From assembly GCA_947462335.1 (NCBI GenBank), contig OX381707.1:86177606-86241605 (forward strand): 64,000 bases of DNA, written 5' to 3'. The notes below the pieces were generated by a model. The model saw only the letters and a program-made list of their open reading frames with translations. It had not been told where the DNA came from and made no database searches. A program made the translations under genes and the position numbers. Each line of letters starts with the position of its first letter. Position 1 is the first letter of the stretch. Origin of the DNA: Harmothoe impar (lineage: Eukaryota > Annelida > Polychaeta > Phyllodocida > Polynoidae). Shown piece by piece: positions 16,345 to 64,000 of the stretch.

Positions 16345-17230
16345 ACTCCTTACAAGAGTCATCCCTCCATATCTGGGTTATCTCTTCGTATCTTGGTCAT
16401 CCCTCCTTATCTGGGTCATCTCTTCTTATCAGGGTCATCCCTCCTTATCTGGGTCATCTCTTCTTATCCGGGTCATCCATCATTATATAGGTCATTCCTC
16501 CTCTATCATGTATGGTTATTGGATCATCCTTCTTTATTAGGGTCATCCCTTCACAGGGGGGCCTTTCCTCCTTATTAAGGTGATCCGACCATATTCGGGT
16601 CATCCATCTAATCTCTCCTAATTGGGTTCATCCCTTCTTATTGAGGTCTTCCCTTCTTATTACGGTCATTCATCCTTATCTGGGTAACCCCTCCATTTGT
16701 AGGCATCCCTTCTTATCTGGGTCATCCCTGCCTCTCTGGGTCATCCCTCCTAATTTGGGTCATCCCTTCCTATCTGGGTCATCCCTGCCTCTCTGGGGAC
16801 ATCTCTCCTAATCTGGGTCATCCCTCCTCACCTGGGTCATCCCTCCTGATTTGGGTCATCCCTCCTTATCTTGGTCATCCTTTATTATATAGGTCATCTC
16901 TCCTCATTTAGGTCATCCATTCTCATCAGGGTCATCCTTCCTTGCCTGGGTCATCCTTCAATATCTATTGGTCGCCTCTCCTTACCAGGGTCATCCCACA
17001 TTTTTTGGGTCATCCCCCATAGTTGGCTCATTCCTTCTTATTTGGGTCATCCTACATTATATAGCTCATCACTCATGATTTGGGTTGTCCCTTCTTATTG
17101 GGTCATCCTACATTATATAGGTCACCCCTCATGATCTGGGTCATCTCTCCCTATCCGGGTCATCCTTCATTATCCGGGTCATTCTTACTCAGGGGGGAAT
17201 TCCTCCTCATTGAGGTCATCTCTCCTTGTC
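16345..17230. repeat. 19-bp minisatellite, copy A (GGGTCATCCCTCCTTATCT)
   Basis: About 45 degenerate head-to-tail units. Long open frames rich in Gly-His-Pro-Ser cross it only because of the repeat. The same array, with the same order of variant units, occurs at 49.7-50.3 kb and resumes after the LINE at 56,864. Confidence 0.9.
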
Positions 17231-26600: not shown

Positions 26601-29600
26601 ATATATGATAATGGTTCAGATAACTGCATGCATGCTATAAACATCTCATTACGTGTTTGTACAACCTGCAGGGGAGACTATTTGTACTTAGCACCTTACC
26701 CTCCCACACTACTTGTGGTTATGACACCAAGAAGCTAAACTGCTGTAGGCTCTGAGATTGTGACAATTGAAACGCCTGTGTAGTTTTAACCGGGTGTAGT
26801 CTTTGACCAGCAAGTTTCAAAAGGGCTGAAATGGGAGCTAAGTACACAGAAATGCAGGGAAGTTTGTAATATATTCTGTTCAAATATCCATTAACCTTTC
26901 CCCCCATTTCTACATAGCCCCCATTTCAGCCCTTTTGAAACTACACAGGTCAAAGACCACACCGGGTCAACTCAGGAAACACAGCCTGTACCTCTCAAAG
27001 CTGAGGGCAGCCAGCTGGGTGAACTCTTTGAAGAGATTCATGACGGCACAGCCAACGGGTCCCAGGATGGGGTTGGTGAGGTATGACAGGAACGTCTCCA
27101 GGTACTGAAAGTGGGGAACTGTACTATACAGGTTTCATATATTAGTGTGAACTGTCTGTTTTGAGGGCATGGATTCTAAGCGGGCCAAATACAACCCTGC
27201 TTGTTGCAACAACCCTGCCTAAAAATGAAAAGATTTTACTTCATTTTTTAGACAAGCATTACATCTTTTTAAAAGTGATAGGTGGACTCATAATGTGTGT
27301 TCCCAAGGAGGACTATTTGAGGGTCAACATGAACTATATTAGAACCTTCTAACTGGTATAAATCTAATATAAATCAGATTTGAATCTAAAACCTTCGAAC
27401 TTGTATACATTTGGTATGAATCATATTTGAATTTCAGTGCCGAGGTTCAAACCTTAACATAACAGATATGAAAAATTGAGTGAAAACCAATCCTGTACAG
27501 TAACTTACGGCATGGAATACAATAGTAACAGAATTCAGACAGTCAGCCACTGCCATGCCAGCAAGCAAGAGGTTGGTCGACGTCTTCAACTCTGGACTCT
27601 TCAGAATTGAGATGATGATCAAGATGTTTCCTATAATACAATGTTAGGGAGGTGTCATTGTTTTAAAACCAAGTAGTAGAGTTGCTGCCTTTTAAGGTTA
27701 CAGGTCTCAGGGTTTCTTAGGGTTTCTGATACAGTAGAGAAGCTAAAAATATCACTATGTCAACACTATTTAGAATGAAATTCTTTGCATTATTCAAGTT
27801 TAAAGGGGGGGGGGGTTGAAATTGCACCACCTCTTGTTTGAAAGTAGCCTTTATTAGAGTTTTGCATGGGTGCTTGTGTTTGCATGAGATACAGGCATGG
27901 CCCAAAAGATTTGCCTTGTGTTGATTTAAAAAAAAATCTTATACTATACCAAAGGCTTTATAAGGAAGAGCAATTTATTGCCATTGGACATTTTCCATTG
28001 CTTTCTTGATATCCCCATTTTGAAAATCAAAAGGAGTTTACAAACCAATGCATCGCAGGCCATTCAATATGGCCCCAATTTATGCAACAAAATATTACTT
28101 CACAGTGGTAGTTGCCATACTTACCACAGATTCCTAGCAGCAGGGAGAGAAATGCTAATATAGCATTAAAGACAGAAAGAGGAATGTTGTCTCCCATCAT
28201 CCCGAGAGGAGAGTTTTTCCAGTATTTGAGAAAAACTGATGAATTGCCAGGCCAACACTGCACAGACCAGCGTTCCCCATAATCAGGGAAATTTACTATC
28301 ACACAATACAATTTTGAACGCAGAATTGGGTTCATGGCTATTTCCCCTGACTTCTTAAGGAACTTAGTTCCATAATTTGTTCGACCTTCTAGATGGACCG
28401 TGAATTGAGTGATGTAAGGCCATGAATTACGGACACCCTGCTGAAAAAATGATGAAAAAACTTATTTATTTAGCTGGTAAATTAGGCTTCCTGAGTCTAT
28501 ATGGCTGAATAACGAGGGACATTTCTTGTTCCTAAAATGTCCTAAAATATCAACAATCAAAAAAAACTGTATAGAGGCATGTCTGGTTGATAATGGAGTT
28601 AGGATAAGGAGCATGTGCAGCCTGGGCTGCCTGATTACATGGATAGACAGATCTAGTAATGTTCTAACCCTGCAAACAACTTAGTTAGCACTATTAATTG
28701 ACCCTGTAAGGACGGCATGACACCTTAATGAATCATCCTCTGGTCGTCAGGATGCATGAATGCAGCCCTTGTGTGTAACTTAGTACATTCATCCTTCATA
28801 GGGTTAACCAAAAATTCACCATAGTCTTGGTTTTAATTTAGAACTAGTTTTGTGTAAGCTCTAGTTAAGGTTGAGTTTGGAATACCTTTTTAGCACTTAT
28901 GAATATAGGGCCGAATCACTCACACATCACATAAAGCATTGAACTATGTAATATATCATCATAACAAGGCATACATTAAACATGTAGTTTGACCTTAGTT
29001 GGCATGAAGAATGAATGCATCATGCTGAAACTACAGAAATGTATCACCTCCATAGGGACAGCATGATGCATTGATGTATCATCAGTGAGCCCCAGAGATG
29101 CATTCATTCATCAGGTAATTAGGTGCACTGCCTCTACAGGCCCTAAGACCTACAAAAAAAGGTTTGTTTCAGGTCAACCGACCAACCCTATATAAACAGG
29201 ACCAACCCCACCTTTTTTTTGCAAATTGTCATATTTTTACACTTTTTTGGGAGTCAATTTTAGATTAACAAAAATTTAGTATTTTTTTTTGGGTCACTTT
29301 TAGAGGGGAAGTAAAAAAAAAGTTAAAACAAGAAAAATATGGTCAAAGAGTCTTTAAGACTCATTTTTCCTGCACCTGCCTAGGCCTTCATGATAACATG
29401 TATGGGACTGTGTAGGTCTACAGGGACAGGATCAGTTGTGGAGACTGTAGGATGAATTAGGATATCACTATAGGCATAGGCTATAGCAATGGGCATGCTA
29501 GTCATCTCAGTAAACCTACATTGTCTAGGCCTAGGCCTATATCTCGCCCCTTCTTCCCCAAATTCATAGATCCACCTAACTGGGACTGGTTGTCATGCAG

Positions 29601-39463: not shown

Positions 39464-40852
39464 CAATTCAATTCAATTCAATTCAATTCAAAATTCTTTA
39501 TTTAAACTGCAACAGACAGGGATAAATCCCTGTATTTTGTCTATCACAGCAAATGCATAGATATTCATTTCTCGACATCTTGCATATTATACTATTCAAA
39601 GGCATCCTGATTAGATGCAGTTTAAACTAGTGATATATTCATTAAGGCATGTTGACAACTTTTAGAGTGTGTTACGTCATGTCTATCATACTGTTTAGTA
39701 TTAGTATAGTACATGTATCATAGAACAATATATATTTGGTCTCTCAGGGAATAGGAGTAGAATCTGGGTAACCATATTGCTCGGGCCAGGAGCAGTCAGC
39801 TATCATACATATTACAGATTAAGCAACCAGTATAATTAATTATAAACGATTTTTAAACACAAGTAGAGAGGATGAGTTTCTCTGAGCAACTGTGAGTGAG
39901 TTCCATTTATGGGTTAACCTGTATGTTACACTATGCTGGGCTGTGGTAGATTTATACCAATCCACCTTAGCTAGGATTGCATCATGCATTCTGGTGTGGA
40001 TTTGTCGCACATCATGGTGCTCTGGGTTCTGCATATATTGAAATGAGGCAATTGCAAGTGCCTTTTCCCTTCTTACCGCAAGGGAGGTAAGCCCTGACCT
40101 AGTCCTTAGGATTTCTATGTCCAGATCTTTCTCAAGATAGTAACAGACTTTGGTCATCCTATCAATTGAACTTTGAATTTTGTCCAGACCTTATTTGTGG
40201 CCGGTGCCATATATGAGTTGGCCATAGTCTACTATGGGCATGACCATAGTTATAAGGGTGTCAAGGGCAGCATCAAGTGTTAGCCTAGTTCTGAGCCTAG
40301 TTAGAAGATAGGACTTATATGATAGACTTTTATTGACTACTTTAAGGTGGCCCTTAAAATTCAGGTCACTATCCAGCTCAATACCCAGGTATCTATATTG
40401 ATGAGTTTGCAATATTTGCTGGCCATCTATAGACAGGTTTGGGATGTCTTGCCTAGCAACTCGCTGCTGAGTCCCATATAAGGCAAATTTGGTCTTTTTT
40501 ATATTTAGTGACAGCTTATTCTTCTTGCACCAATTGGCAACATTTGCAAGGTCTTGGTTGATTAGAGCTAGGATGTTAGGTGTGAGCAGAGGGTAGATGC
40601 AGTAGAGAGCAGTGTCATCAGCATATAATTGACTCTTGAAGGTTTTCAGGGAGGTATCAAGGTAGTTTATGTAAACTAAGAAAAGCAGTGGGCCCAAGAT
40701 AGAGCCCTGTGGGACCCCACACAGGATAGTACCAGGGGCTGAGACGATCCCATTTGCTTTGGTAGTTTGTTGCCTATTGGTTAAATAGGATTCAAACCAG
40801 TTTACAGTGGCTTCACCAAGTCCAATTTTCCATTTAATGGATGTAAAAACAC
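39464..40852 (-). mobile_element. 5'-truncated LINE with (TTGAA)n 3' tail
   Basis: On the minus strand, an RT reading frame starts abruptly inside the palm domain near 40,852 and runs through the C-terminal domain to a 3' UTR. This ends with AATAAA (39,497-39,502) and about five TTGAA-type pentamers (39,465-39,490 read as ATTCA on the plus strand). A microsatellite tail instead of poly(A) is typical of CR1/L2-like elements. It is a different family from the 50-56 kb LINE. Confidence 0.85.
39840..40852 (-). pseudogene. Reverse transcriptase fragment (RT palm to C-terminus)
   Basis: One frame covers the segment, interrupted by a single TAA at 40,191-40,193. Visible motifs: WFESYLTNR, GVPQGSILGPLLF, YADDTALY, a KKTKF segment, YLGIELD, then the C-terminal region REKALAIASFQYMQN. 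The catalytic YADD is present; the first catalytic Asp (motif A) is lost by the 5' truncation. No endonuclease part remains, so it is a dead copy. Confidence 0.87.
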
Positions 40853-41784
40853 CTAGTACCACCCACCATCTACGACACCTCTGGGAAGCTTTACCTGTTG
40901 TAGATGTGGAAGTCCCAATGCCTGTGTTTTATATTCCATTCAGGAGTCCATTCCAGGCTGGTCTAACTTAGTAAAGCGACCAATAAGACACATTGTGTGA
41001 GACTGATTGGTAGTAAATGGTCACTAGGCCTGCCTCACCGCTCACAGTGCTGGAATGTGGGTGTTCGCTACAGCTGAATTACATCAGTCCCTGCACTCAC
41101 AGAATACTGTACTAGAAATATTTGTTTTCTGCTTCGGTACATCAAGGAGAACATTTGACTAGCTATTTTCATAAATATGAAATGTCAAACATCTATATAT
41201 AAGTTAAGCTTACTTAACCTCAAAGTGCAAGTTGAATAGTAATCATATATATTGAATACAGCAGTCTATTTAGTGCAGTTGGTAGGAAATGAAAATAGCA
41301 CTTAGGTAGCAAGAATGAGTGATGGGATAGAAAAAGTCCCTCACCTCTTTATTCCTCTTCCACCCTAACCACCTCAGTGTCTGCCCTAATAAGTCATATA
41401 GCCAATTAAGTGACACATTACACTGGCCTGCCCTGGGGCAACCAGTTGAGAGGTTGACTATTAAGGAGAGTCTAGATTGGTTTGTAAGGGAATACATTTA
41501 TATCAATCAGATGAAAGGAAATGGTTAGTTAGTAATGAAAAAGCTCTAGTAGAAGTTAAAAAGAAAAACTCTGAAGGGAGAAGATAAAAGTAAGGGTACG
41601 GACAATTGTGACTGCAGTCATCAGTCACAGTACTTTCTTCTGTAATGGATGATCAAACACATCAAGATAATCAGATTTGAAACGTTTCAGAAAGCTCCTC
41701 ACCAGTAACCATAGACATTGATAGATGTACAGGTGTCTAATGTTCTGCCTCAGAGAGGGTCTGATTATGAATGGAGAGCCTGTG
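40853..41784. other. Non-coding, no gene recognised
   Basis: Unique-looking sequence between the truncated LINE and foldback element 2. No features. Confidence 0.5.
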
Positions 41785-49500: not shown

Positions 49501-49734
49501 CATTTATCTGTGTTCCACATGCTTAGGGATATATCATTGCACAACCTTGTGCAGAAAAAATAAATTGTATATATGCAATATCATCCTAATGGTAGATTTG
49601 GATACAGAAAGATTTAATCACAAGACAGTTAACCAAAGCTGATGGTCCTCTTAAAGACTATATATCTAGACTAGACAACAACTAGTCTTGCCTCTTAATC
49701 ACCTCCTTCAGACATCACACTCCTTATCAGAGTC

Positions 49735-50330
49735 ATCCCTCCTTATGTGAGTCATTTCTTCTTATCTGGGTCGTTCTTCATTATATAGGTCATTCCTCCT
49801 TTTTTTGGGTTATGCATTGTTATTGGATCATCCTTCTTTATTCGGGTCATCCCTTCTCAGGGGGTCCTTTCCTCCTTATTGAGGTGATCCCACCATATTT
49901 GGGTCATCCATCTCATCTCTCCTTATTAGGGTCATCAATCCTTATAGGGGTCATCCCTTTCTTATTGAGGTCTTCCCTTCTTTTCGGGGTCATTCATCCT
50001 TATCTTGGTAATCCCTCCATTTGTAGGCGTCCCTTCTTATCTGGGTCATCCCTGCCTCTCTGGGTTATCCCTCCTGCTTTGGATCATCCCTCCTTATTCT
50101 CATCAGGGTGATCCTTCCTTATCTGGGTGATCCTTCAATATATTGGTCATCTCTCCTTATCTAGGTCATCCCTTCCTTTCAGGATCCCTCATTTTTTGGG
50201 TCATCCCCCTTATTTGGGTCATCCCTCCTTTATTTGGTCATCCTACATTATATAGGTCATCATTCATGATTTGGGTCATCCCTACTTATTGGGTCATCCT
50301 ACATTATATAGGTCGGCCCTCCTGATCAGG
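49735..50330. repeat. 19-bp minisatellite, copy B, left part
   Basis: Orthologous to the 16.3-17.1 kb array but with fewer units. It is interrupted at about 50,330 by the LINE. Confidence 0.9.
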
Positions 50331-50559
50331 AAGCTATGGAGAACGAGACCTGCTAGATGCGCCGCCGCTGAGCTCTGAGGGATATTCCCCCCAGGAATGG
50401 TTAAAACAACAGTGAGAGCCTTAACATACACCACACTACTGGAGTAAGGTTCTGTGATCACGTTGGACTGGAAATTTACAGCCTGGCTGAACTCAATAGA
50501 GTTCTACATGCCGACATAGGTTTCTCCAGAATCACCGGTGCCCACTGCTATACGTAAAC

Positions 50560-52533
50560 ATGGCGTCAACCACCCTTGACGAGGTGGAAGGCATAATCAA
50601 GGAGCTCGCCACTGAATCGGCCAAGACCCGCTCTGGTCCTAACATAGGAGGTAAGGTGTCGACTGCATTAGACTTTGTTCTTACTGGATTGAACTCTACT
50701 AAAGAACTACTGTCAGAGTCTATTGAAAATGCCCACGGGAGGATTGTGACAGTTGAAAATTAAAAGGCGGTACTGGAGGACAGGGTAAGACAGCTTGAGT
50801 CTAGGCTTGACAGGGCGGAAAGGCAAGTGAGGGTTAACACCCGTGACATTGCAGAATTAGGGATCTCTCTAGCTATACAGGACCAAGCGGCCAGACGCAG
50901 GAACTTAGTCATAGAAGGCTTACCCTTCACCCCCAGAGAGAATACTGATGATATCACCTTTGAATTATTGAAAAAGATTGACCCGACCATTGATAGAAAC
51001 GAACTCGATTACGCCTATAGGCAGGGTGCCCCAAACACCACCAAGAGAGCCATAGTAGCTGTCTTTACCAAGGCTTCCACCAGGGTCAAGCTTATGACAT
51101 TAAAAGGTGGTTTAAACAATGATCCTGAAGTCAAGCATATATATGTCTCTGAGGATACCAACGCAGTAATTAAAAAGCAGAAAGCTGACGTCTCATCTGT
51201 GGCTCAGCTAGCTTTCGAGATGAACTATGATGTAAAGGCAAAAGGTAGAGGTCTTATTTATAACAACCGTTATTATACCCACCAGAACCTGAGCCGACTC
51301 CCCGAGGAGATCAAATTAGCAAACTGTCGTACGGTAGTCACTGATACATACGTAGGGTATCACTCTGAGTTGGCTCCCCTCTCCAACTTCTACCCATGCC
51401 GAATTGAATCTGGTCAACATATATATTCGTCAGTTGAGCAGGGCCTTTGCCATAGAAAAGCCCTATATGCAGGGGACATGGTCAAGGCACAAGAGATTAT
51501 GGACGCCTTTACTCCTCTTAAGGCAATGAACCTTGGTAAGGACATAGACTGCCCTACATGGAGGAATCATGACGAGAGTAACCTCCAACAACTGAATGTG
51601 ATGAAATATGAACAAGATGCAGGCCTCCTTCAAATTTTGAGGGCAACCGAATCTCGAGTGCTTTTGGAGGTCACAGGTTCCAAATTTTGGGGCATAGGGG
51701 CCTCTATGAAAAGCAAACCCCTTAAAAATGGTACGTGGAAAGGCCAAAACAGGGGTGGATATATACTGATGGAGGCCAGACGAATCCTGTGTGGGATACC
51801 TAACCCACATGCTAGGCCTAAACCACAAGAGACTGGAGGAGCAGCCATCCCACTCCTTCCACCCCCCCCCCCCCTCCAGCAGTAACTCCTGCCGCAGCAC
51901 AACCTGATGCCACACCTGCGGTACCTGCGGTACCTGCGGCACCAACCACCGCAGCACCGACCACACCACCTGCGGCAGCTACACCTCCAGCAACAGCTAC
52001 GGCAGCTACATCAACCTCAACAAACGCAGAGCCAACTACTACAGCACCACCAGCCCCCCCCCCCAGTCATCACGAACGTAAATGATATGTCGACACCACC
52101 AAAGGGAAAAGCTTCTGAAGTGCAAACTCCGGGCGCCGCTGCTGCGATCGTCCACCTGCCCAAACCAACACACACACTCCAACGCACAGCTCTTCCCACC
52201 ACATATAGGCAGACGCAGGATGTCAGATACGACTCAGCCCCCTGGGGTGCAGGGCGACGACCAGACAACAGGAGGAGGGGCAGATCTAATAGAGGCTCGA
52301 GAGGTGGGGCTTGGCATGATGCTACGAACAACATGTACAATAGCCATGATACCAGAAGGAGCCTTGAGGTGTATCATCAGCCTGTCATCCCCCCTCTTGG
52401 AAGCCCTGGATGTATCATAAGGCCTAGCAAGCTGAACTTTACTCCCACGCCCCAACAGGGACAAGGACAAGGACAAGCCAGTCAAGATCTACATGCCCTA
52501 ATGAAGGGACATGTACCTACACAAGGCCGTTAA
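50560..52533 (+). pseudogene. LINE ORF1: coiled coil, RRM-like, NADAR, A/P/T linker, RG-rich tail
   Basis: ATG at 50,560 opens a frame that continues to the TAA ending at 52,533 except for three breaks: an in-frame TAA at 50,761-50,763, and two C-tracts (13 C at 51,862-51,874; 11 C at 52,054-52,064) that shift frame one way and then back. Between the tracts the original frame is the Ala/Pro/Thr-rich one. In order: a heptad-like region (about residues 45-90), an RRM-like segment beginning RRNLVIEGLPF with the YVSED stretch typical of LINE ORF1 proteins (about 110-245), NADAR (about 263-411), linker, then a C-terminus with RRRGRSNRGSRGG that should bind nucleic acid. Expected role is packaging LINE RNA in the RNP. 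The breaks mean this copy does not encode intact protein as read; C-run length errors in assembly are an alternative. Confidence 0.82.
51350..51792 (+). other. NADAR (YbiA/DUF1768) domain inside LINE ORF1
   Basis: About 147 uninterrupted codons match the NADAR pattern from end to end: LSNFYPC near the start, SVEQ followed by a Lys-Ala helix, TPLKAMNLGK, a Trp, an M-x-Y-E-Q segment equivalent to the usual K-F-Q, ATESRVLLE, FWGIG, and G-x-N-x-x-G-x-x-L-M-x-x-R at the end. The family glutamate (SVEQ) and the WGIG loop are present. Known NADAR proteins cleave N-glycosidic bonds in nucleotide-derived substrates; some remove ADP-ribose from guanine in nucleic acids. That this LINE domain is catalytic is inference. 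No stop or frameshift falls within it, although two C-tracts flank it downstream. Confidence 0.85.
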
Positions 52534-52598
52534 ATACATATTAAACTATATATATGTCTGTGAGTACCAGTTATGTAACCAAAGTGCCGTTTGACATA

Positions 52599-53274
52599 TG
52601 TGACCCATCCTTACAAAATGAGGCACAAGTCGCACATATTGGAACCTAGATATGGGCCCTCAAAGGTAGAATGGTCAAAATGTTTGAAAATGACTTTTTA
52701 CTTTTTTTTTAAATATAGATGTTAATTTATTCACATAGATAGCATTCAGATTGACATTCACTCCTAAAAGGCAATTTTTATCAACTCAATTAGGCATACA
52801 CCAGGTGATCCTACTCACAGTCACTAGCTTATTGATTTTAGTGGCATTATTGATTGGTAACAGTGAATAGAACTTTACTGGTTGCCATGGTAACAAAAGT
52901 TAGAATGTTCTAATGAATAATAACAGAGAGGGCATTCTAACAGCTTTCAGGAAATGTAATATGATGCATATGTCTGGCAAACGTATCTGGTCATTTAGAA
53001 ATTGCTCAGACCTAGGTTATCACCTTTAATAGATTTTACATTTATCGGCATTTAGTAGTTCTGATATCTCGGAACATATTGTTTGTTGTACATTTTCTCA
53101 ATTTATTATATTTACGGTTCTAATTTTCAAAAATAATTTTAAAATACTTCCCATGCCCCTACATACAAGTGTAAGACATCAAATGAAAGCTCTTGATGCA
53201 TACTATTTGAATATGTGGCTAACACAGTTTTTATATTTTGCGACTTGTGCCTCATTTTGTAAGGATGGGTCACA
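52599..53274. mobile_element. 676-bp MITE nested between LINE ORF1 and ORF2
   Basis: The ends are a perfect 36-bp inverted repeat (52,599-52,634 and 53,239-53,274) beginning TGTGACCCATCC. The element is flanked by TA on both sides (52,597-52,598 and 53,275-53,276), as expected for Tc1/mariner-type insertion. The interior is AT-rich with no meaningful ORF. The perfect ends imply a recent insertion. Removing it leaves about 470 nt between ORF1 and ORF2. Confidence 0.85.
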
Positions 53275-53680
53275 TATGTGCTAACGACCTGTTGGATTGA
53301 TTGCCCAGTCCACCCTTAGCGGCAATGTTATGTAAGATCTAGCTGTCTAGCTGACCTACTGACCCGCCATAGTCAGTGTGTGTTGCAGGCTCCTAAGGTC
53401 TCTACCGTATATTATACCAATCCAATAAGCTCTGTGGATTGTGCCTTCTCAATTTAATTATTTATAATTTGTGAAAATTAATCTTTCTCACATAATTACC
53501 TATAGCATTGTGCATATATATGTGTGACCCTTACTACCGGTAATATACACTTTTCATAATCATTTCTTCTTCTTTAGGCTCGTAGAATGCTCAAAATATC
53601 TGTATTACCCCGGAGCTCTAAGCTTCTCTCTGATACCATAGCTATGCTAGAATGTTACAGATGCGATCAGCTTTTCATAT

Positions 53681-56569
53681 GTGTTATCATGTCATCTCAT
53701 ATCATCTACCGTACCACCGAGTCCTGGGCTCTACGCAATGGTTAGGTTAGACACAGTATCTGACCGTAAAGGTCTTCTCTTCTCATGTATTAATGCTAGG
53801 TCAGCTTACCCAAAAAGGGTCATTATTAAGAAATTTATTACGCACACGGATATTACAGGTGTCGTAGAATCGTGGCTCACCCCTACTATATCTGATGCAA
53901 TGATGCACCTCCCCGGTTATCAATTTTTTAGGCTTGATAGGTACCCCAACCGGAACAAAAAGGCTGGAGGTTTAATGATTTACTTAAGAGATACATACAC
54001 TGCCACACTAGATGAGAATGCCTGTATAATTGATAGGGAATATGAAATTTTGTGTGTTGATGTTGAAATTGGTAAGATTAAATATAAAATTTTCGTGTGT
54101 TATAGGCCACCTGATGCGGATGTAAGCAAAAGGGCTATTTTTGATAAATTAACGGAACTCAAAACACCTGTTTCTAAAAATAGGAAAATAATAATGTTTG
54201 GAGATTTTAATGTGGACCTTTTTACTAGGAAAGATATTCAAGACTCTAATGTAGAGAGCTTCTGTACTGACAATGATATGTTTCAGCTCATTGATGAGAT
54301 AACTCGCCCTATTTCTGGTACACTCATAGATCATATTTATATCAATGAGAGGATTCACAATGTATGTGAATTTGGTACCATAGATTTTCATATTGCTGAT
54401 CATAAGCCTATTTATTTATTGATTAAGTGTGAGCGCACAAAAATTAGAAAAAAAGTTGTCGATGCTAGATCGTATAAGCATTATGATATGCAGCATTTTA
54501 AAAATTTATTATTAGCTGAAAAATGGGATGACATTTTCACTTGTAATAATCCAGATACTTTATGGGATAATATTATTTATACGATTAAAAGATGTTTGAA
54601 TGTATTATGTCCCATACGTAGGCTGGTACTACCGGTCTATACACCGGAATGGCTTACACCACCAATTATTAACGCTATGCAGGTTAGAGACTCACTATAT
54701 GTCAAAGCCCAGAGGTCGATGGATCCAGACGACTGGAATATAGCTAACTTTCATAAGAACAGGGTGGAGGCTATGATACATTACAGCAGGAAAGAGAAGC
54801 TAGACGAACTCTTTGTACAAAGAAGAAGTAACCCTGCTCAGTTCTGGGCAGGTGTTAGGAAGCTTTTACCGACCAAAACAGGTTCTACTTTTATTAAATT
54901 GAAAAATTCTCTGACTAATGAAATCATATCTTCAGAAGCCTGTTCTAAATTCATTAATGATTACTTTTCGACCATTGGTTCCAAGCTAGCTGAGGTGCTG
55001 CCACCTATTGACCCACATGTATATTACACTCCGCCTGCTACTGCGCCAGTCAACAAGGTTGATCTACTATGGGAACTTAGCTATCTAGATGTTATTAAAG
55101 TTATTAAAACAATTAATGTTACTAAGTCTTCTAGTATTAAACATGTAAAATCTTATGTTTTAAAGGATGCTCTATTCATCATACCTGAAGCGTTAATGTG
55201 TCTGTTTAACTTATGCCTGCGTAAGAATTATTTTCCCCGGTCCTGGAAGGCCGCCACTGTTGTTCCCCTACCGAAAAAGGCAAACTCCATGAGTGTTAGT
55301 GATTTAAGACCCATTAGTCTCCTCCCTCTACCAGGTAAATTATTTGAGCGTGTTATATGTAAGAGGCTTCAGCATCACATGAGTACTTATAATCTTTTGA
55401 CCCCAGCGCAACATGGCTACAGGCCTGGTCACTCCACCATTTCAGCCACTACCACACACATTAAATTCATTATTAATAACATTATTAATAACCTGCCTAC
55501 ATATAGCCTCTATTTGGACTACAAAAAGGCATTTGATACGATTTCCCACCCTATTCTTCTTAAAAAATTAGATGGTTTTGGACTTAACGAAGAAACATGC
55601 GCTTGGTTCAAAAGCTATTTAACTGATAGAGTACAACGCACAGTAGCTAATAATACACTCTCAGATGATGCTCCTATAGTATATGGTGTACCACAGGGTT
55701 CTGTGCTAGGCCCTATCCTTTTTTCCATATATATTAATTCTTTACCTTTAATTGATGACTTTCACATTGTACTTTACGCTGATGATGCAGTTTTATCTTT
55801 CACTAATCCAATACAAATGCAAGTGTGTCTTGATAAGCTATCAGTATGGTGTAGGGAGCATAGTCTTACAGTGAATGAAAACAAAACTCAATGGATGATT
55901 TATAATAATATTCATAACGATAATCCTATCTTTACTATGAATAATGTTACTCTATCTCGATGTTACACCTTCCCTTATTTGGGTATCACCTTGGACCCTG
56001 ATTTATCTTTTATTAGTCACAGGAAACTAGCGATGTCCAACATAAGACATAGAATTAATGAGCTGGGTAAAATAAGAACACATGTTGATAGTGCTAGTGC
56101 CCTAAGCATATATAAGGCCATGGTGATACCATCTTTTGATTATGGGGATTTTGTTTGGGATAGGGGTAAAAAGGGTGAAAATTGGGAGCTTCAGTTGCTT
56201 CAAAACAAAGGCTTACGTACTGTTTATAAGGTGAAGCTCGAGGAAAACCCTATGTATAATACAGATGAGTTACACACTAAAAGTGGATGCCTTTACCTTA
56301 ATCATAGACGTGACATTCAACTTTTATATTATGCGTTTTCATTGTCAAAGATGCCTGACATGCTTGATGTACGCGATATACCTACACGTAGACACTTAGG
56401 AAATAGGCTTAAGGCCATACGCAGCCTTAAAACCAATAGTGACAAAAAGTGCCCTGTATAGGGCCATTGACAGGTGGAATGACCTGAAACCATCCTACAC
56501 GCTTATTGACTCCCTGAGGGACTTTAAGCTAGCCATTAAGCGCGATTACCCAGACTGCTTCATGGCGTG
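53681..56569 (+). pseudogene. LINE ORF2: APE endonuclease and reverse transcriptase, one frameshift near the 3' end
   Basis: Open for 926 codons from 53,681 to 56,461; a better start may be the Met at about residue 20. The APE-type endonuclease covers about residues 30-245: N38 in INAR, E63 in VVESW, GDFNVD at 174-179, DHIY at 217-220, ADHK at 239-242 (final catalytic His present). RT follows, with RPISLLP, GYRPGHST, DYKKAFD (D613), GVPQGS from 669 and YADD 699-702. The C-terminal domain (NHRRDIQLLYYAF) resembles the fragment at 21.8 kb. A one-base frameshift between about 56,410 and 56,440 ends the frame at 56,461; the shifted frame continues (RAIDRWNDLK) to TGA at 56,567-56,569. The enzyme would nick target DNA and prime reverse transcription of LINE RNA. 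Confidence 0.88.
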
Positions 56570-56841
56570 AACTTGCCATCTAACTTACAATGTCTCATCT
56601 CTCATCTCATCTCATCATTCTTATATAATAACATACCAAAACTGTATGTATATGATATAATCTATTTATATATATTAATGCATTACATGATGTAAACATG
56701 CTACAAGGTTCTCCATAGCTTATAATGAAAGAGATTAAGACCGTCCAACACTTGATGTAATTTAGATAGGGGTACGGACGGCAGAAAGGCAATGCGCCTA
56801 AGTCTAGGTTTGGCTATATATATTATATAGTCATTAGACCC

Positions 56842-56847
56842 AATAAA
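56842..56847 (+). terminator. LINE poly(A) signal AATAAA
   Basis: AATAAA lies a few bases before the 10-A tail that forms the 3' junction with the minisatellite. Confidence 0.75.
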
Positions 56848-56863
56848 TACTTTAAAAAAAAAA

Positions 56864-56960
56864 GGTCATCCCTCCCTATCTGGGTCATCCTTCATTATCT
56901 GGGTCATTCCTACTCAGGGGGGAATTCCTCCTCATTGAGGTCATCTCTCCTTGTCAGGGC
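56864..56960. repeat. 19-bp minisatellite, copy B, right part
   Basis: Array units resume directly after the LINE poly(A) and match 17,140-17,235 of copy A, including the TACTCAGGGGGGAATTCC variant. Confidence 0.88.
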
Positions 56961-62400: not shown

Positions 62401-64000
62401 TGATAATGGTTCAGATAACTGCATGCATGCTATAAACATCTCATTACGTGTGTGTACAACCTGCAGGGGAGACTATTTGTACTTAGCACCTTACCCTCCC
62501 ACACTACTTGTGGTTATGACACCAAGAAGCTAAACTGCTGTAGGCTCTGAGATTGTAACAATTGAAACACCTGTGTAGTTTTAACCGGGTGTAGTCTTTG
62601 ACCAGCAAGTTTCAAAAGGGCTGAAATGGGAGCTAAGTACACAGAAATGCAGGGAAGTTTGTAATATATTCTGCAAATATCCATTAACCTTTCCCCCCAT
62701 TTCTACATAGCCCCAATTTCAGCCCTTTTGAAACTACACAGGTCAAAGACCACACCGGGTCAACTCAGGAAACACAGCCTGTACCTCTCAAAGCTGAGGG
62801 TGATGAGGTGGTTCAGGGCAGCCAGCTGGGTGAACTCTTTGAAGAGATTCATGACGGCACAGCCAACGGGTCCCAGGATGGGGTTGGTGAGGTACGACAG
62901 GAACGTCTCCAGGTACTGAAAGTGGGGAACTGTACTGTACAGGTTTTATATATTAGTGTGAACTGTCTGTTTTGAGGGCATGGATTCTAAGCAGGCCAAA
63001 TACAACCCTGCTTGTTGCAACAACCCTGCCGAAAAATGAAAAGATTTTACTTCATTTTTTAGACAAGCATTACATCTTTTTAAAAGTGATAGGTGGACTC
63101 ATAATGTGTGTTCCCAAGGAGGACTATTTGAGGGTCAACATGAACTATATTAGAACCTTCTAACTGGTATAAATCTAATATAAATCAGATTTGAATCTAA
63201 AACCTTCGAACTTGTATACATTTGGTATGAATCATATTTGAATTTCAGTGCCGAGGTTCAAACCTTAACATAACAGATATAAAAAATTGAGTGAAAACCA
63301 ATCCTGTACAGTAACTTACGGCATGGAATACAATAGTAACAGAATTCAGACAGTCAGCCACTGCCATGCCAGCAAGCAAGAGGTTGGTCGACGTCTTCAA
63401 CTCTGGACTCTTCAGAATTGAGATGATGATCAAGATGTTTCCTATAATACGATGTTAGGGAGGTGTCATTGTTTTAAAACCAAGTAGTAGAGTTGCTGCC
63501 TTTTAAGGTTACAGGTCTTAGGGTTTCTTAGGGTTTCTGATACAGTAGAGAAACTGAAAATATCACTATGTCACCACTATTTAGAATGAAATTCTTTGCA
63601 TTATTCAAGTTTAAAGGGGGTGGGGGTTGAAATTGCACCACCTCTTGTTTGAAAGTAGCCATCATTAGAGTTTTGCATGGGTGCTTGTGTTTGCATGAGA
63701 TACAGGCATGGCCCAAAAGATTTGCCTTGTGTTGATTTAAAAAAAAATCTTATACTATACCAAAGGCTTTATAAGGAAGAGCAATTTATTGCCATTGGAC
63801 ATTTTCCATTGCTTTCTTGATATCCCCATTTTGAAAATCAAAAGGAGTTTACAAACCAATGCATCGCAGGCCATTCAATATGGCCCCAATTTATGCAACA
63901 AAATATTACTTCACAGTGGTAGTTGCCATACTTACCACAGATTCCTAGCAGCAGGGAGAGAAATGCTAATATAGCATTAAAGACAGAAAGAGGAATGTTG
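59412..64000 (-). CDS. Class A GPCR, copy B, partial (exons 4-11; 5' end outside window)
   Basis: Tandem paralogue of the 23.6-31.8 kb gene, same strand, about 35.8 kb away. Exons: 63936-64000 (exon 4, cut by the window edge), 63320-63441, 62785-62915, 61843-61972, 61176-61366, 60762-60795, 59948-60156, 59412-59490. All splice sites and phases are kept. Exon 6 is 131 nt against 113 in copy A; the extra 18 nt encode NHLITL in TM3. This restores 25 residues between the TM3 Cys and the Arg of ERY, the usual class A spacing, so this is the likelier functional copy. By eye, replacements elsewhere are Met to Ile (TM4), Phe to Leu and Ile to Met (exon 10), and one Arg/Ser and two Gln/Arg changes in the C-tail, against about five silent changes. 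Ligand unknown; expected at the plasma membrane. Confidence 0.85.
62583..62763. repeat. Hairpin repeat in GPCR intron 6, copy B
   Basis: Same two inverted arms as in copy A, with small differences (one is CCCCAATTTC for CCCCCATTTC), so the hairpin predates the duplication. Confidence 0.75.

What the first reader, a model, noticed from the sequence alone, without database searches (positions are those of the whole stretch)
50560..52533. LINE ORF1 carries a NADAR (YbiA-like) domain
Seen: within one ORF1 frame, an RRM-like segment is followed by about 147 unbroken codons matching NADAR end to end (LSNFYPC, SVEQ, TPLKAMNLGK, FWGIG, final G-x-N...LM..R), then an Arg/Gly-rich tail. Known: NADAR proteins cleave N-glycosidic bonds in nucleotide-derived substrates, and some remove ADP-ribose from guanine bases, opposing DarT-like toxins. 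Inference: a retrotransposon RNP protein with this domain could strip ADP-ribose from its RNA or cDNA and so resist a host ADP-ribosylation defence, or use the fold only to bind nucleotides. I do not know whether this has been reported.
Basis: partly seen in the sequence, partly recalled or inferred. Interest (0 to 1): 0.92.

Follow-up and report, generated by a model that had tools for sequence, protein, structure and literature searches.

The report
LINE retrotransposon protein carrying NADAR enzyme
A jumping gene in an animal genome carries, inside its RNA-packaging protein, an enzyme domain known elsewhere for removing ADP-ribose from DNA guanines; related jumping genes in the same genome keep its active-site residues, which suggests that the element needs this chemistry to copy itself.

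The parts
50313..56863 (+). LINE insertion inside a GTCATCC-type minisatellite; ends approximate, A-run at the 3' end
   Evidence: Minisatellite arrays at 49920-50300 and 56864-56911; terminal AATAAATACTTTAAAAAAAAAA and AGGTC on both sides; the short duplication is weak because the unit repeats.
50560..52533 (+). ORF1 (family-level extent); in this copy interrupted
   Evidence: extent supported by near-identical copies.
50761..50763 (+). In-frame TAA private to the window copy
   Evidence: Absent in 3 of 3 near-identical copies.
50764..51330 (+). Coiled coil + RRM + CTD, homologous to L1 ORF1p (type II ORF1)
50902..51153 (+). RRM fold within ORF1
51349..51789 (+). NADAR domain
51436..51438 (+). 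Catalytic glutamate equivalent to E43 of 8bau (SVEQ)
   Evidence: E in 25 of 25 LINE rows; codon GAA 10/GAG 8 in 18 family copies.
51457..51459 (+). Phosphate-binding lysine equivalent to K50
   Evidence: K 23, R 2 of 25 LINE rows; AAA 10/AAG 8 in 18 copies.
51667..51669 (+). Catalytic glutamate equivalent to E125, the YbiA-subfamily residue
   Evidence: E in 25 of 25 LINE rows; GAG 13/GAA 5 in 18 copies.
51790..52533 (+). Low-complexity Pro/Ala/Thr then Arg/Gly-rich tail, with frame displaced between two C-runs in this copy
52594..53279 (+). Foldback/MITE-like element nested between ORF1 and ORF2, with terminal inverted repeats
   Evidence: blastn of the segment against itself: 58 columns at 91% and 48 columns at 96%.
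53651..56461 (+). ORF2 frame: APE-type endonuclease and reverse transcriptase
   Evidence: PF00078 1.3e-37, PF14529 5.9e-07, PF03372 3.6e-06, each over its cut-off.

Best explanation
ORF1p of this LINE is an L1-type RNA-binding protein (coiled coil, RRM, CTD) with an active NADAR hydrolase fused to its C-terminal side. The ORF1p coats the element's RNA, and probably the nascent cDNA at the target. The NADAR domain, brought there at high local concentration, removes ADP-ribose, most likely from guanine bases, so that reverse transcription is not blocked. SHOWN: the domain, the fold match, conserved catalytic residues, purifying selection, recent copies, recurrence across LINE groups. INFERRED: catalytic activity (about 0.75), ADP-ribose-guanine as the substrate, action on the element's own nucleic acid, and the identity of the host ADP-ribosyltransferase.
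Against: R79 of 8bau is R in only 1 of 25 LINE rows, Y84 is missing in 16 of 25 and Tyr in 1, and D86 is kept in 2 of 25; D130 is kept in 15 of 25. The adenine side of the pocket is therefore remodelled, and the substrate may not be ADP-ribose or may be held differently. No host guanine ART was identified: the DarT-family (PF14487) and PARP (PF00644) searches of the host genome did not complete. I have no biochemical data on any LINE NADAR. NADAR looks confined to a minority of LINEs: only 1 of 14 strongly RT-scoring loci showed it in the 1.9-kb stretch sampled, so it is not essential to LINEs in general.
Confidence: 0.45

Rival explanations
1. The NADAR domain is an active N-glycosidase but acts on a diffusible NAD- or nucleotide-derived molecule (for example a host defence signal), not on the element's nucleic acid.
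For: NADARs also process riboflavin intermediates, and for phage NADARs soluble ADPr derivatives are the proposed target (PMC9503650 passages); the adenine-side contacts differ in LINE NADARs.
Against: Fusion to an RNA-coating protein argues for a nucleic-acid-bound or RNP-bound substrate; eukaryotic RNA-virus NADARs are proposed by the same paper to act mainly on macromolecular ADPr.
Confidence: 0.2
2. The domain binds ADP-ribose or nucleotides (reader or RNP assembly role) and its chemistry is not used.
For: Pocket remodelling; E88A of E. coli C7 NADAR had only a minor effect in vitro.
Against: Both catalytic glutamates are kept in 25 of 25 rows across LINE groups whose NADARs are often about 30% identical; a binding-only domain would be expected to lose at least one of them in some lineages. 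The rows come from best-scoring hits, which may flatter this.
Confidence: 0.15
3. It removes ADP-ribose put on ORF1p/ORF2p or nearby chromatin proteins by host PARPs.
For: PARP-family factors touch LINE retrotransposition (ZAP paper PMC4441479, seen in a search listing only); [quoted passage not shown]
Against: In the passages read, the activity demonstrated for NADARs is on guanine-linked ADPr; no demonstrated protein deconjugation was seen there.
Confidence: 0.1
4. A one-off capture of a host or bacterial NADAR by a dead LINE copy, or a chance resemblance.
For: The window copy itself is damaged.
Against: E-value; 41 matches in the genome; dN/dS 0.02-0.04; 19 of 20 other NADAR loci with RT downstream; host NADAR genes L001-L004 differ in loop length and fall among bacterial and oomycete NADARs in the tree.
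Confidence: 0.01

Closest known systems
NADAR/YbiA superfamily (PF08719), e.g. P. nicotianae NADAR 8bau and E. coli YbiA 2b3w
   Same: Profile hit, fold, E43, K50, W89, E125 and C-terminal G-x-N..G....R motif.
   Different: Fused to LINE ORF1; the loop between E125 and W133 is one residue shorter in the LINE rows measured (7 against 8); R79, Y84 and D86 mostly not conserved.
L1-type (type II) LINE ORF1p, human L1 ORF1p 2ykp/2yko
   Different: L1 ORF1p has no NADAR (recalled; none appears in the matches); here it follows the CTD closely (window, L009, L015, L022, L026) or after a long linker (e.g. L010, L018, L019).
Tx1 LINEs of Crassostrea gigas with YbiA-family NADAR in ORF1 (PMC12477816)
   Same: NADAR domain in a LINE ORF1.
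   Different: The window ORF2 is not of the L1/Tx1 group; that paper gives one sentence and a supplementary figure that I did not see. L026 in this genome is L1/Tx1-like and may be the nearest to it; not compared.
[quoted passage not shown]
   Same: A retroelement that acquired NADAR.
   Different: LTR element, Pol not ORF1, brown alga; outside Ectocarpus, blastp of those domains retrieved almost only bacteria.
DarTG1 antitoxin NADARs (BC4488 family)
   Same: Same superfamily, and a guanine de-ADP-ribosylation model.
   Different: BC4488 has Asp in place of the YbiA Glu (E125); the LINE rows have Glu. No DarT-like partner seen in the element.

Membership tests
NADAR superfamily (PF08719) | Profile score over curated cut-off along the whole domain | tested here: met
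   79.2 bits vs 35.1, profile 9-162/163.
NADAR superfamily (PF08719) | YbiA fold | tested here: met
NADAR superfamily (PF08719) | Glu (E43) and Lys (K50) of the active site | tested here: met
   Window codons 51436 and 51457; 25/25 E, 23 K + 2 R.
NADAR superfamily (PF08719) | Full set of ADP-ribose contacts of 8bau, adenine side (R79, Y84, D86); a property of the solved member rather than a defining one | tested here: not met
   R79 in 1 of 25, Y84 in 1 of 25 (gap in 16), D86 in 2 of 25.
NADAR superfamily (PF08719) | N-glycosidic hydrolase activity | not testable with these tools
   Needs purified protein.
YbiA subfamily of NADAR | Glutamate at the E125 position (Asp in BC4488, His in phage) | tested here: met
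   Glu in window (51667) and 25 of 25 LINE rows.
BC4488 / DarT1-associated NADAR | Aspartate at that position and an adjacent DarT | tested here: not met
   Glu, not Asp; no sense ORF of 120 aa or more in the element besides the ORF1 and ORF2 frames.
Type II (L1-type) LINE ORF1 | Coiled coil, single RRM, CTD | tested here: met
   definition from PMC4120745 passages.
Non-LTR retrotransposon (LINE) | Downstream ORF with APE endonuclease and RT | tested here: met
   PF14529, PF03372, PF00078 over cut-off.
L1/Tx1 group (ORF2) | ORF2 alignable with L1 ORF2p through endonuclease and RT, with C-terminal zf-RVT (zf-RVT as a group mark: recalled) | tested here: not met
   Window ORF2 aligns only over RT (E 5e-17 at best), no zf-RVT at E <= 1. 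L026 ORF2 by contrast 2e-98 over 11-880 with a zf-RVT match at 2.4e-05 that stays under Pfam's cut-off (25.3 vs 27.5 bits).
CR1/L2 lineage of the Jockey superfamily | Position in a reference RT phylogeny | not tested
   No reference RT set was held; the assignment of the window ORF2 to this lineage is from recall of sequence character only.

The most novel reading that the evidence does not exclude
Base ADP-ribosylation of RNA or DNA is an animal defence against retrotransposons. LINEs of several deep lineages answer it with an ORF1p-borne NADAR hydrolase, an anti-restriction domain derived from one ancient capture (shared one-residue-short active-site loop) and since spread by ORF1 exchange or long vertical descent across L1-type and non-L1 LINEs.
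Probability: 0.27. Interest if true: 0.93.

Novelty: new variant of a known kind. Interest (0 to 1): 0.68.

Why it matters
Why some LINE ORF1 proteins carry enzymatic domains is a standing puzzle. Here the domain is one whose studied relatives remove ADP-ribose from guanine, it keeps its catalytic residues across very divergent LINEs, and it is under selection as strong as that on the RNA-binding core. That makes a concrete hypothesis testable: that nucleic-acid ADP-ribosylation limits retrotransposition in animals. It would also give a possible physiological setting for eukaryotic NADARs, whose roles are described as poorly understood (PMC11125620 abstract).

Tried and rejected
Rejected readings: chance match, dead one-off capture, and recent capture from the host's own NADAR genes (see rivals). 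I first took the 'LME' glutamate near the C-terminus for the third catalytic residue. After reading PMC11543638 section 12 and mapping 8bau numbering the residue is the Glu of 'LLEVTG'; the LME position varies.

Results that did not favour a neat story. (1) One clade of LINE NADARs is neither shown nor rejected: the unconstrained tree needs 4 label changes and p-AU is 0.0935 (trait columns removed; 24 LINE rows against 34 others, namely 4 host, 2 PDB and 28 of the other P rows). (2) dS saturates, so the pairwise ratio uses only pairs with dS 0.05-1.5: 58 of 153 pairs, 40 of the 105 possible among 15 copies. The codon model over all 18 copies gives omega 0.043, higher than the pairwise median. 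Between very close copies the ratio is unstable, e.g. L016-L025 NADAR 0.64 against 0.39 upstream at dS of about 0.02-0.03. (3) NADAR first-look candidates (3484) and RT first-look candidates (27232) are not counts of copies; 150 of each were scored. I looked at neighbourhoods of 20 of the 150 NADAR hits, all among the best-scoring, so residue conservation may be flattered. (4) L013 had no RT by profile in the held 10 kb, and L028 only part of one. (5) Of 14 RT-anchored stretches of 1.9 kb only L067 showed NADAR, partial; several others look like SGNH-esterase ORFs by eye, and some may be truncated copies or have NADAR outside the stretch. (6) The 8bau-type adenine contacts are not conserved.

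Attempts to name it through the paper library found nothing. Prior-art searches; among the results listed only PMC12477816 tied NADAR to a retrotransposon by title, abstract or passages seen (one search matched 1,315 papers, 15 listed; the other papers listed were not opened except PMC12832006, where Nadar is a university's name).

Full report
WHAT IS THERE. The window holds a LINE of about 6.5 kb on the + strand, inserted in a GTCATCC minisatellite (arrays at 49920-50300 and 56864-56911). It ends in AATAAATACTTTAAAAAAAAAA. ORF2 (frame 53651-56461) has an APE-type endonuclease and a reverse transcriptase. ORF1 spans 50560-52533 at family level. In this copy it has TAA at 50761, a stop at 51883, and a stretch between two C-runs that reads on in another frame as a Pro/Ala/Thr-rich linker. 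The TAA is absent in 3 of 3 near-identical copies, and C-run length differs between them. A foldback element of about 690 bp (52594-53279) sits between the ORFs.

CATALYTIC RESIDUES. In P. nicotianae NADAR the distal ribose is held by E43 and E125 and the pyrophosphate by K50 among others; mutation of the equivalents in E. coli C7 NADAR abolishes activity or rescue for most substitutions, E88A being mild in vitro (PMC11543638 section 12). Mapped by alignment, E43 is Glu in 25 of 25 LINE rows, E125 in 25 of 25, K50 is Lys in 23 and Arg in 2, W89 is Trp in 23, W133 is Trp in 22 and Tyr in 3, K75 is Lys in 22, G78 is Gly in 20 (rows L006, L009-L028, window, P0001-P0003; L005, L007 and L008 dropped as near-copies; P0009 counted among the others there). 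Against this, R79 is Arg in 1, Y84 is absent in 16 and Tyr in 1, D86 is Asp in 2, and D130 is Asp in 15. The catalytic and phosphate side is kept and the adenine side is remodelled.

SELECTION. The DNA of the domain has 41 matches in the host genome: the window itself, three copies at 99-100%, 25 copies with most of the segment at 74-97%, and 12 shorter or weaker ones. I fetched 20 of these 28 copies. Of the 20, 17 full-length intact ones plus the window were compared; L033, L037 and L043 were dropped (stops or length). The catalytic motifs are present in all 18. Median pairwise dN/dS is 0.027 over 58 usable pairs of 153. In 15 copies with an intact upstream part it is 0.024 for NADAR and 0.028 for RRM+CTD over the same 40 pairs. 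A codon model gives omega 0.043 over the 18 copies; fixing omega at 1 on the same tree costs 352 log-likelihood units. Of 153 codons 105 never change amino acid and 95 of those change synonymously; E43, K50 and E125 codons change only synonymously. By the pairwise measure the domain is as constrained as the RNA-binding core. In another group L016-L017 and L017-L025 give NADAR dN/dS 0.08 and 0.07 against 0.32 and 0.30 upstream; closer pairs have too few changes, and dS was not computable for NADAR in most more distant pairs.

NOT ONE FAMILY. The host genome (1.51 Gb, 736 contigs, unnamed) gave 3484 first-look NADAR candidates; the 150 scored all passed the cut-off, four of them the stand-alone ORFs L001-L004. 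I fetched 20 of these 150 with about 10 kb each: 19 of 20 have a reverse transcriptase on the same strand downstream of the NADAR ORF; L013 does not, and in L028 it is only partly held. L026 ORF2 is L1/Tx1-like (2e-98 to human L1 ORF2p over 11-880; a zf-RVT match just under the cut-off). The window ORF2 aligns to L1 only in the RT (5e-17 at best) and shows no zf-RVT. L016/L025 form a third, distant group. So NADAR sits in at least three RT groups. RT and NADAR distances agree (Mantel Spearman 0.46, 1 of 5000 permutations as high; 17 loci plus the window), and supported small clades recur in both trees. The domain has thus long travelled with its RT. P0001, P0002 and P0003 (source tags lgn, ena, lgn, organisms unnamed) have the same architecture, and P0009 looks like an ORF1 fragment by the CTD-like residues before its NADAR.

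ORIGIN. The spacing between E125 and the following aromatic (W133) is 7 in the 28 LINE rows (L005-L028, window, P0001-P0003; L005 and L009 are one place) and in P0009. It is 8 in 119 of the 122 other database rows that could be measured (one each 7 [P0009], 9 and 10; P0006 could not be measured), in 4 of 4 host NADAR ORFs, and in 8bau and YbiA (rows). This suggests one origin. The tree without those columns neither shows nor rejects it (p-AU 0.0935). The four host NADAR ORFs (L001-L004) fall among bacterial and oomycete NADARs, not with LINE NADARs. NADAR nevertheless looks confined to a minority of LINEs: of 14 RT-anchored stretches only L067 had a (partial) NADAR.

HOW IT MOST LIKELY WORKS. 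L1-type ORF1p coats the element's RNA (established for L1; recalled). A C-terminal NADAR would then ride on that RNA and on the cDNA at the target site. NADARs from bacteria and from P. nicotianae hydrolyse guanine-linked ADP-ribose (PMC11543638 and PMC11125620 passages). Guanine-N2 ADP-ribosylating enzymes are native to some animals, e.g. CARP-1 in a clam (PMC11209040 passages). RNA viruses of animals carry NADAR or Macro domains, proposed to undo host ADP-ribosylation (PMC9503650 passages). The reading that LINEs use NADAR in the same way is inference. The remodelled adenine side leaves room for another substrate, and no host enzyme has been identified here.

COMPARISON WITH WHAT IS KNOWN. 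PMC12477816 (Genome Biology, September 2025; [quoted passage not shown] gigas, suggesting a role in processing RNA intermediates. The existence of NADAR in a LINE ORF1 is therefore not new. What I did not find in print is its presence in non-L1 LINE groups, its junction to an L1-type ORF1p core, the conservation of the catalytic residues, the selection result, and the LINE-specific loop.

Noticed in passing
L016:5832-5834 (-), L025:5856-5858 (-), L017:4063-4065 (+): In one LINE group the NADAR ORF1 and the endonuclease-RT ORF2 lie in the same frame, separated by a single in-frame UAG in 3 of 3 copies held, including one about 80% identical in NADAR; a candidate for stop-codon readthrough.
   Followed up: partly
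L011:5170-5964, L012:5691-6449, L023:5149-5898, L024:5648-6316, L027:5657-6517 (all -), L028:4542-5354 (+): A middle ORF of 223-287 aa between NADAR ORF1 and ORF2, SGNH-esterase-like by eye (GDSRVRD, DGLHP motifs; recalled), without a Pfam hit under E 0.01; possible three-ORF LINEs.
   Followed up: partly
window 52594-53279: Foldback/MITE-like element of about 690 bp with terminal inverted repeats of about 48-58 columns at 91-96% inserted between ORF1 and ORF2.
   Followed up: partly
window 40194-40928 (-): A second reverse-transcriptase fragment, E 1.7e-58 to the LINE RT profile.
   Followed up: no
L002, L003, L004 (host contig C21, 30.056-30.084 Mb) and L001 (C19): Four stand-alone host NADAR ORFs, three within 28 kb, with the usual 8-residue loop; an animal NADAR gene cluster that does not group with the LINE copies.
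   Followed up: partly
window 16358-17182 and 49720-50300: Two separate arrays of the same 19-bp GTCATCC-type minisatellite, the second interrupted by the LINE.
   Followed up: no
window 27343-27432 and 63154-63243: Two tandem pairs with the same 47-bp consensus unit 36 kb apart.
   Followed up: no
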